From positions 23,889 through 87,888 of the forward strand of contig JAMCWO010000150.1 of NCBI GenBank assembly GCA_023481165.1: 64,000 nucleotides of DNA, given 5' to 3'. This DNA is from Planctomycetota bacterium. Its GTDB lineage: Bacteria; Planctomycetota; Phycisphaerae; Sedimentisphaerales; Anaerobacaceae. Shown here one piece after another: positions 11,615-54,111 of this stretch (positions are counted from its first letter, which is position 1; every line of letters begins with the position of its first letter). Both the position numbers and the translations under genes were made by a program. The notes beneath the pieces are model-generated. The model saw only the letters and a list, made by a program, of their open reading frames with translations. It was not told the origin of the DNA and ran no database searches.

Positions 11615-11711
11615 GTCATCCTGAACGGAGCGTAGCGGAGTGAAGGATCTGGGTCGCGACGAAGAAAGATATCTATCTGATGGCCAGATCCTTCGCTACG
11701 CTCAGGATGAC
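11615..11711. repeat. Palindromic intergenic repeat, family 1 copy A
   Basis: GTCATCCTGAACGGAGCGTAGCGGAGTGAAGGATCTGG ... CCAGATCCTTCGCTACGCTCAGGATGAC; same family as 30961-31067. Confidence 0.85.
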
Positions 11712-30113: not shown

Positions 30114-31103
30114 TCAATGCGACGAAATCAGGTTTCCTGCGTAGGGGCTTACGTACAGTGTTTCGTTCGTCAATTTGCCCAGATACGTGGACCAGGGCGT
30201 CCGGGCCCCGTAGGCCGCCCGCAACAGCGGCAGTTCGTAAATCACGAGACTCGTGCGGCTGTCCTCCTTGCCCAGCCCGAACTCCACATTGTCCGTGCTG
30301 TTGCGCCGGGAATAGTCGTCCTGGAGGAACATGCCTTGCTTATACCGGCAGATATTGTCCACCGAGTTGAATATATCATCGGTGGAGGTCTGGGTGGAAC
30401 CGGCCGTATTGTTGGGCCGGTAGACGCCATTGCGATTGCGCACGCGAACTTCGTGCACCGCCAGCTTGCCCGAGGGCGCAAAGACAACGGAGAAGGTCGT
30501 GGCGTCGCTCAGCTCGGACAACTCGTCGATGGCCGCATCGCTGGTGATCCCCGTCAGATCGATCACACCCATCGTGTCGGGCAGCTTCATCGGCTCCAGT
30601 CCTTCGACCGCCCGGAACCCGTTGGCCAGGCCGCCCATATTCTTCGGCTCATCATGCACGATGAAGATCATGTACTGCGGGGCGTCCAGCACGGTCTTAA
30701 GGGGATCGAGCGGGTCCTCCGAGGTGCACAGCTTCTGGAAACGGACGCCCACGTACTTCTGCTGACTCATCGCCATGGCGCGGGCGGAGCTCAACGCCGC
30801 GTCGATCATGCTCCGCACGCCGTTTTCTGTTTGGAACGACTTCATCAGCGAGCGGACCACCGGCACCGCGAAGCCCATCAGCAGCGCCATGGTCCCGATG
30901 ACCAGGGTCATCTCGATCAGCGTCAAACCCGCCGTCCTGCGTGCCCGCCCACACGCGCTTGTCATCCTGAGCGCAGCGAAGGATCTGGGCCGCGAACGAG
31001 ATTCCCCGTCCGGGCTCGCCGCGCAGTTCCGTTCGCTGGCCAGATGCTTTGCTGCGCTCCGCATGACAATTTCAGTATCTGGTTGGCGAAATACGTTCTT
31101 CAT
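30114..31103 (-). CDS. Prepilin-type protein, GspH-like, with repeat-derived leader
   Basis: AGLTLIEMTLVIGTMALLMGFAVPVVRSLMKSF; leader encoded by the palindromic repeat at 30961-31067. Confidence 0.75.
   Translation of the reverse strand: MKNVFRQPDTEIVMRSAAKHLASERNCAASPDGESRSRPRSFAALRMTSACGRARRTAGLTLIEMTLVIGTMALLMGFAVPVVRSLMKSFQTENGVRSMIDAALSSARAMAMSQQKYVGVRFQKLCTSEDPLDPLKTVLDAPQYMIFIVHDEPKNMGGLANGFRAVEGLEPMKLPDTMGVIDLTGITSDAAIDELSELSDATTFSVVFAPSGKLAVHEVRVRNRNGVYRPNNTAGSTQTSTDDIFNSVDNICRYKQGMFLQDDYSRRNSTDNVEFGLGKEDSRTSLVIYELPLLRAAYGARTPWSTYLGKLTNETLYVSPYAGNLISSH
30961..31067. repeat. Palindromic repeat, family 1 copy B, inside the 5' coding region of the GspH-like gene
   Basis: GTCATCCTGAGCGCAGCGAAGGATCTGGGCCGCGA ... 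TGGCCAGATGCTTTGCTGCGCTCCGCATGAC. Confidence 0.85.
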
Positions 31104-31582
31104 CGCACGCCTTTGTTGCTAAGGTCGTCGCCGGTGCCGAATTGCCGGTCCGGCCCGGCCGAGATCAGTTCGGGAAAGGTGCTATCCGGCAGACAAACGT
31201 AGTCCATCACGGTTCCCCAGGGGTCGCGCATCGACCGCAGATCCGCGCTGCCCCCTTCCCCTTTGACCACGCCGGGAGCGAGCCTGTCCAACACTTGCCG
31301 CGACGCCGGCACCAAACGAAGCTCCTGGCACATTGACTCGATATGCGCCAGGGCGTTGGCGGGATTCCGCTCCGCCTGCGGCGGGAACTGACCCTTGGCC
31401 TCGTAGTACTCGCGCAGGGCGCTGCCGACGAGGGCGAAGGCGTTGCGCAGCGCGTTCTCCTTCGATTGCGTGTCGACGCGCAGCGTCACCGTGACCACGA
31501 TGCCGGCCAGGACCACGATGATGCCCAGCACGACCAGCATCTCCACGAGCGTCACGCCGCTATGGTATCGCGAGTTGGCCAT
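31100..31582 (-). CDS. Pseudopilin, GspG-like (short)
   Basis: SGVTLVEMLVVLGIIVVLAGIVVTVTLRVDTQSKENALRN ... ISAGPDRQFGTGDDLSNK. Confidence 0.8.
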   Translation of the reverse strand: MANSRYHSGVTLVEMLVVLGIIVVLAGIVVTVTLRVDTQSKENALRNAFALVGSALREYYEAKGQFPPQAERNPANALAHIESMCQELRLVPASRQVLDRLAPGVVKGEGGSADLRSMRDPWGTVMDYVCLPDSTFPELISAGPDRQFGTGDDLSNKGVR

Positions 31583-54035: not shown

Positions 54036-54111
54036 GTCATTGCGAGGAGCGCAGCGACGCGGCAATCTCAATCCGTGGGATGGGAGATTGCTTCGCTTCG
54101 CTCGCAATGAC
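54036..54111. repeat. Palindromic intergenic repeat, family 2 copy C
   Basis: GTCATTGCGAGGAGCGCAGCGACGCGGCAATCTC ... GAGATTGCTTCGCTTCGCTCGCAATGAC. Confidence 0.88.

What the first reader, a model, noticed from the sequence alone, without database searches (positions are those of the whole stretch)
30955..31103. Palindromic element inserted in frame within the leader of a GspH-like prepilin
The gene starts at 31103 with a 4-nt ATGA overlap to the upstream gspG-like gene, as expected for an ancestral operon junction. The prepilin motif AGLTLIE begins only after ~57 codons. Codons in between (MRSAAKHLASERNCAASPDGESRSRPRSFAALRMT) are the palindromic repeat 30961-31067. The reading frame is intact, giving an unusually long leader before the prepilin peptidase site.
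Basis: partly seen in the sequence, partly recalled or inferred. Interest (0 to 1): 0.72.

Follow-up and report, generated by a model that had tools for sequence, protein, structure and literature searches.

The report
Repeat palindrome abutting a pseudopilin gene
A common short repeated palindrome has landed in the gap between two secretion-system genes, and because the downstream gene has lost its old start codon it now reads in frame with the repeat, whose last bases probably supply the new start; this is a tidy example of a known kind of event rather than a new system.

Summary
A 107-nt palindrome (30961-31067) lies in frame inside the open frame 31103-30114(-), before the prepilin motif G|LTLIE. 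It is one copy of a dispersed repeat: 52 arms in this genome, 0 with the reversed control pattern. Its anatomy is that of a CGTC/TGTC-tagged REP inverted dimer. None of 29 copies examined overlaps a gene, judged by codon usage. All 7 congeneric orthologues start gspH with a 10-residue leader after a 17-144 nt spacer, and the closest one carries a different REP dimer in that spacer. So the element is intergenic by origin. An open frame through such an element is common: 11 of 46 gene-facing arms. The ATGA overlap at 31103 is not the ancestral start in this genus. What is unusual is that the ancestral ATG position now reads GCG. The only in-frame starts left are the ATG in the repeat's own terminus (30965, 13-residue leader), one at 31064, and 31103 (59-residue leader). 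Leader conservation favours 30965. Ribosome-site signals and RNA folding favour 31103. In every case the repeat-encoded residues lie in the cleaved leader, so the mature pseudopilin is unchanged. This is a new instance of a known kind; interest is low to moderate.

The parts
30961..31067 (.). REP inverted dimer (107 nt); inverted repeat extends to 30959-31069
30961..30986 (+). REP arm 1, GTCATCCTGAGCGCAGCGAAGGATCT (exact family consensus)
31042..31067 (-). REP arm 2, GTCATGCGGAGCGCAGCAAAGCATCT (22 of 26 identical to arm 1; other stem version, so a heterodimer)
30963..30965 (-). ATG in the terminal ATGAC of the repeat; candidate gspH start with 13-aa leader MTSACGRARRTAG
   Evidence: inferred start
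30954..30956 (-). GCG codon where all 7 congeners have the gspH start ATG (10 codons up to the cleavage Gly)
31101..31103 (-). Upstream in-frame ATG overlapping the gspG-like stop (ATGA); rival start with 59-aa leader, SD-like AAAGG upstream
30114..30926 (-). gspH-like pseudopilin body from LTLIE on; strong coding signal
31100..31582 (-). Upstream gspG-like pseudopilin gene (N_methyl)

Best explanation
The element is an ordinary intergenic TGTC-tagged REP inverted dimer that sits in the spacer between a gspG-like and a gspH-like pseudopilin gene of a type II secretion-type operon. Shown: it is a dispersed repeat, it is intergenic as a family, and the same spacer holds other repeats in relatives. 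Inferred: after insertion, the rest of the spacer and the ancestral ATG were lost (that codon is now GCG), which left gspH in frame with the repeat. Translation most likely begins at the ATG in the repeat's terminal ATGAC (30965), giving a 13-residue, Arg-rich leader close to the conserved 9-10. Prepilin peptidase then cuts at G|LTLIE, so no repeat-derived residue remains in the mature protein. The hairpin in the mRNA may also stabilise or separate gspG from gspH expression (inferred, as for other REPs).
For: Dispersed family: 52 arms in the genome, 0 in the control. Covariation inside each arm: positions 6:22 read CG, GC or TA in 79 of 79 arms, 11:17 read GC or AT in 77. None of 29 copies overlaps a gene called by codon usage, and the frame upstream of LTLIE has non-coding-like codon usage (low power for so few codons). 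All 7 congeners have a leader of exactly 10 aa, and most of the other relatives examined 9-10. Congeneric spacers are 17-144 nt (sequences); a start at 30965 gives 134 nt. G002 has a different REP dimer in the same spacer. G033 has a further REP-like palindrome there with a clear ATG downstream.
Against: ATG 30965 has no Shine-Dalgarno-like site and is predicted fully base-paired at the foot of the hairpin. ATG 31103 is more accessible and has a modest SD-like match, -3.9 kcal/mol. No expression data exist. The loss of the ancestral ATG rests on one draft assembly.
Confidence: 0.52

Rival explanations
1. gspH is translated from ATG 31103 by coupling to gspG termination. Ribosomes read through and melt the hairpin, making a 59-aa leader that contains the REP-encoded peptide, which prepilin peptidase removes.
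For: Best initiation context of the three ATGs: ATGA overlap, SD-like AAAGG, start codon largely unpaired. Frame open throughout. Leader length is variable among type 4 prepilins (PMC10191384). R. conorii proteins with N-terminal RPE-1 are expressed (PMC3733652).
Against: No congener starts there, and all have 10-aa leaders. The AAGG context is part of the conserved gspG C-terminal coding (SxKG). The same ATGA in G007 leads to a stop after three codons. Codons 1-46 score as non-coding, though the short leader does too. Open frames through these repeats are common.
Confidence: 0.38
2. Assembly or base error, or a decaying gene: the real sequence has an ATG near 30956, or gspH is poorly expressed.
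For: Draft genome of 376 contigs; a single sequence; two base differences separate GCG from ATG.
Against: The nine codons after GCG align without gaps to congeners and the gspH body is intact with a strong coding score. Downstream pseudopilin genes are open.
Confidence: 0.08
3. The element was recruited as a functional protein segment or as a regulator of pseudopilin export (selected in-frame insertion).
For: The frame is intact and the element sits next to the processing site.
Against: The peptide would be cut off. The family is intergenic in all 29 copies examined and frame openness is at background.
Confidence: 0.02

Closest known systems
CGTC-tagged REPs (Di Nocera et al. 2013, PMC3733652)
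   Same: TGTC variant of the tag, stem beginning AT, inverted heterodimers, intergenic location. That paper also reports REPs at ORF N-termini that are probably extragenic because translation starts downstream.
   Different: Stem has a tandem G-A step and a 3-nt loop; tail is CT rather than CCA. Not assignable here to any of the four described families. A start codon supplied by the repeat is not mentioned in the passages searched; TAG stop codons supplied by GTAG REPs are.
REPIN/RAYT systems (Bertels and Rainey 2011, PMC3116915)
   Same: Two REPs in inverted orientation, short and dispersed, presumably non-autonomous.
   Different: Different tag; the genome's five Y1_Tnp genes are not flanked by this repeat within the loci fetched.
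Rickettsia palindromic elements (RPE-1, RPE-4, RPE-6)
   Same: Palindromic repeats read in frame within ORFs; RPE-4 and RPE-6 are CGTC REPs.
   Different: RPEs lie within coding sequence and persist in proteins. Here the residues are outside the mature protein and the family avoids genes.

Membership tests
CGTC-tagged REP superfamily | CGTC tag, often TGTC or CCTC | tested here: met
   TGTC in 77 of 79 arms
CGTC-tagged REP superfamily | Stem whose first two residues are complementary A and T | tested here: met
   4:24 AT in 75 of 79, 5:23 TA in 78 of 79
CGTC-tagged REP superfamily | Stem of 8-9 bp with 4-5 nt loop | tested here: inconclusive
   Five plus two standard pairs around a tandem G-A/A-G step, 3-nt loop; covariation at 6:22 and 11:17
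CGTC-tagged REP superfamily | Unpaired tail, mostly CCA | tested here: not met
   Tail is CT (then mostly GG) in nearly all arms; the source says most, not all, tails are CCA
CGTC-tagged REP superfamily | Inverted dimers common, heterodimers frequent | tested here: met
   Most copies paired at about 85-125 nt; C versus G stem versions differ between arms in about 17 of 30 listed copies
REPIN mobilised by RAYT | REPs flank a RAYT gene in the genome | tested here: not met
   Five Y1_Tnp genes found; neither repeat family found in the loci fetched around them
Rickettsia palindromic element-type in-gene insertion | Element lies inside a gene whose orthologues are translated on both sides of the insertion point | tested here: not met
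   Orthologues have only untranslated spacer at the site; their ATG lies downstream
GspH-like pseudopilin (type III signal peptide) | Gly followed by hydrophobic residues with Glu at +5 | tested here: met
   G|LTLIE conserved in all congeners; no Pfam hit for P0001 with its long leader

The most novel reading that the evidence does not exclude
A mobile REP dimer has donated the start codon of a conserved secretion gene: the terminal ATGAC of the repeat replaced the lost ancestral ATG, and the repeat-derived residues are disposed of because they fall in the cleaved prepilin leader.
Probability: 0.5. Interest if true: 0.4.

Novelty: new member of a known kind. Interest (0 to 1): 0.25.

Why it matters
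It shows how a short intergenic repeat can become the translation start of an operon gene, and why prepilin leaders would tolerate such events: the leader is cut off. It also warns annotators that open frames across CGTC-like REPs add spurious N-termini.

Tried and rejected
Codon-usage scoring of codons 1-46 against the leader: too short to decide, since the short leader scores negative too. Rfam: only sub-threshold miRNA matches, which reflect the hairpin. Protein scan of genome contigs for close orthologues: no relative. Search for the repeat's 19-mers in papers: none. Recruitment of the repeat's ATG as a general habit: among 126 arms of two repeat families, 46 face a gene, 6 have the terminal ATG in frame, and only the window's copy has no other ATG or GTG before the coding region. 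My first run of the facing-gene script had a frame bug and was replaced. The 20-nt element-to-ATG distance printed for L010 is wrong (a variable was overwritten); by the sequence it is 44 nt. In one search the spacer numbers of several hundred nt come from matching an earlier gene; spacers for L013-L015 were read.

Full report
What is there. The minus-strand frame 31103-30114 is open and overlaps the upstream gspG-like gene by ATGA. Before the prepilin motif G|LTLIE lies a 107-nt palindrome, 30961-31067, with arms GTCATCCTGAGCGCAGCGAAGGATCT and GTCATGCGGAGCGCAGCAAAGCATCT. As RNA it folds at -62.8 kcal/mol, z -5.1.

The element. The own genome holds 52 arms at up to 3 mismatches and none of the reversed control. 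Most are inverted pairs 85-125 nt long. In 79 arms with distinct flanks from the genus, the base before the arm is T in 77, giving a TGTC tag. Each arm has its own hairpin with covariation: 6:22 is CG, GC or TA in all 79, and 11:17 is GC or AT in 77. Partner arms often carry different stem versions, as here. These traits match the CGTC REP superfamily of Di Nocera et al. (PMC3733652), where TGTC is a common variant of the tag and inverted heterodimers are frequent. The CT tail and the G-A step with a 3-nt loop do not match the families described there, so I call it CGTC-like and do not assign it to one of them. None of 29 copies overlaps a gene called by a codon-usage model trained on the window. 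The five Y1_Tnp genes are not flanked by the repeat in the loci fetched, in line with the report that CGTC REPs lack a dedicated transposase.

Orthologues. Seven congeneric orthologues (58-77% identity) all start gspH with a leader of exactly 10 residues of the pattern MxxxAxxTxG before LTL. Their start lies 17-144 nt after the gspG stop. Most other relatives in the family and order have 9-10 residues before the cleavage site. None of the congeners starts at the gspG stop. In G007 the same ATGA overlap exists but is followed by a stop after three codons. A few more distant relatives do start at or overlapping the upstream stop, but with a 9-residue leader (L017, L018, L019, L029). The closest relative, G002, has a different REP-like dimer (GTCATTGCGAGCGAAGCGAAGCAATCT) in the same spacer, ending 44 nt before its ATG. 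G002 has no copy of the window's repeat at up to 2 mismatches, but 77 of that other one. G033 has another palindrome in this spacer (GGATTCCTGCTTTCGCAGGAATGAC), also in an open frame, with a normal ATG downstream giving 9 residues. The spacer therefore collects repeats, and the element is intergenic by origin.

Is the intact frame meaningful? Among 46 gene-facing arms of the two repeat families in four genomes, 11 have a gene frame open at least 90 nt back through the repeat; in the own genome 4 of 20 are open through the whole element. An open frame is thus expected about one time in four. The special point is different: at the position of the congeneric ATG the window reads GCG (30956-30954), and no other in-frame ATG or GTG lies between the repeat and LTLIE. 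Only the window's copy among 126 arms has this. The remaining starts are ATG 30965 in the repeat's terminal ATGAC (13-aa leader), ATG 31064 (46 aa) and ATG 31103 (59 aa).

Which start? For 30965: the leader length and the Arg-rich leader fit the conserved leader, and the spacer would be 134 nt, as in congeners. Against: no SD-like site, and predicted pairing of the ATG close to 1. For 31103: a modest SD-like match (-3.9 kcal/mol), moderate pairing, and translational coupling. Against: no congener uses it, and the SD-like bases belong to the conserved end of gspG. I put 30965 slightly ahead. Both may be used. Either way the type III leader is cut at G|L, leader length is variable among prepilins (PMC10191384), and the mature protein contains nothing from the repeat. 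That explains why the event is tolerated.

Comparison with what is known. Di Nocera et al. describe REPs at ORF N-termini, judged mostly extragenic by comparison with shorter homologues, and GTAG REP termini that supply TAG stop codons. The present case is a new instance of this kind, with a probable start codon instead of a stop. I found no report of a REP-supplied start codon in the searches made, but these searches are limited to open-access text. Verdict: ordinary in kind, with one neat twist.

Noticed in passing
window 11686-11711 (-): Another copy of the same repeat arm; its outer context is intergenic (L051).
   Followed up: partly
window 54085-54111 (-): A copy of the second repeat family, GTCATTGCGAGCGNAGCGAAGCAATCT (43 arms in this genome, 77 in G002).
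   Followed up: partly
The cross-phylum identity of so short a repeat is striking, and no held paper contains its 19-mer.
   Followed up: no
L010, L011, L015, L023, L031 gspG-gspH spacers: The same operon spacer holds unrelated palindromes or tandem repeats in several relatives, as if it were a tolerated landing site.
   Followed up: partly
G000 L039-L043: Five Y1_Tnp (RAYT/IS200-like) genes, none flanked by either repeat family in the loci fetched.
   Followed up: partly
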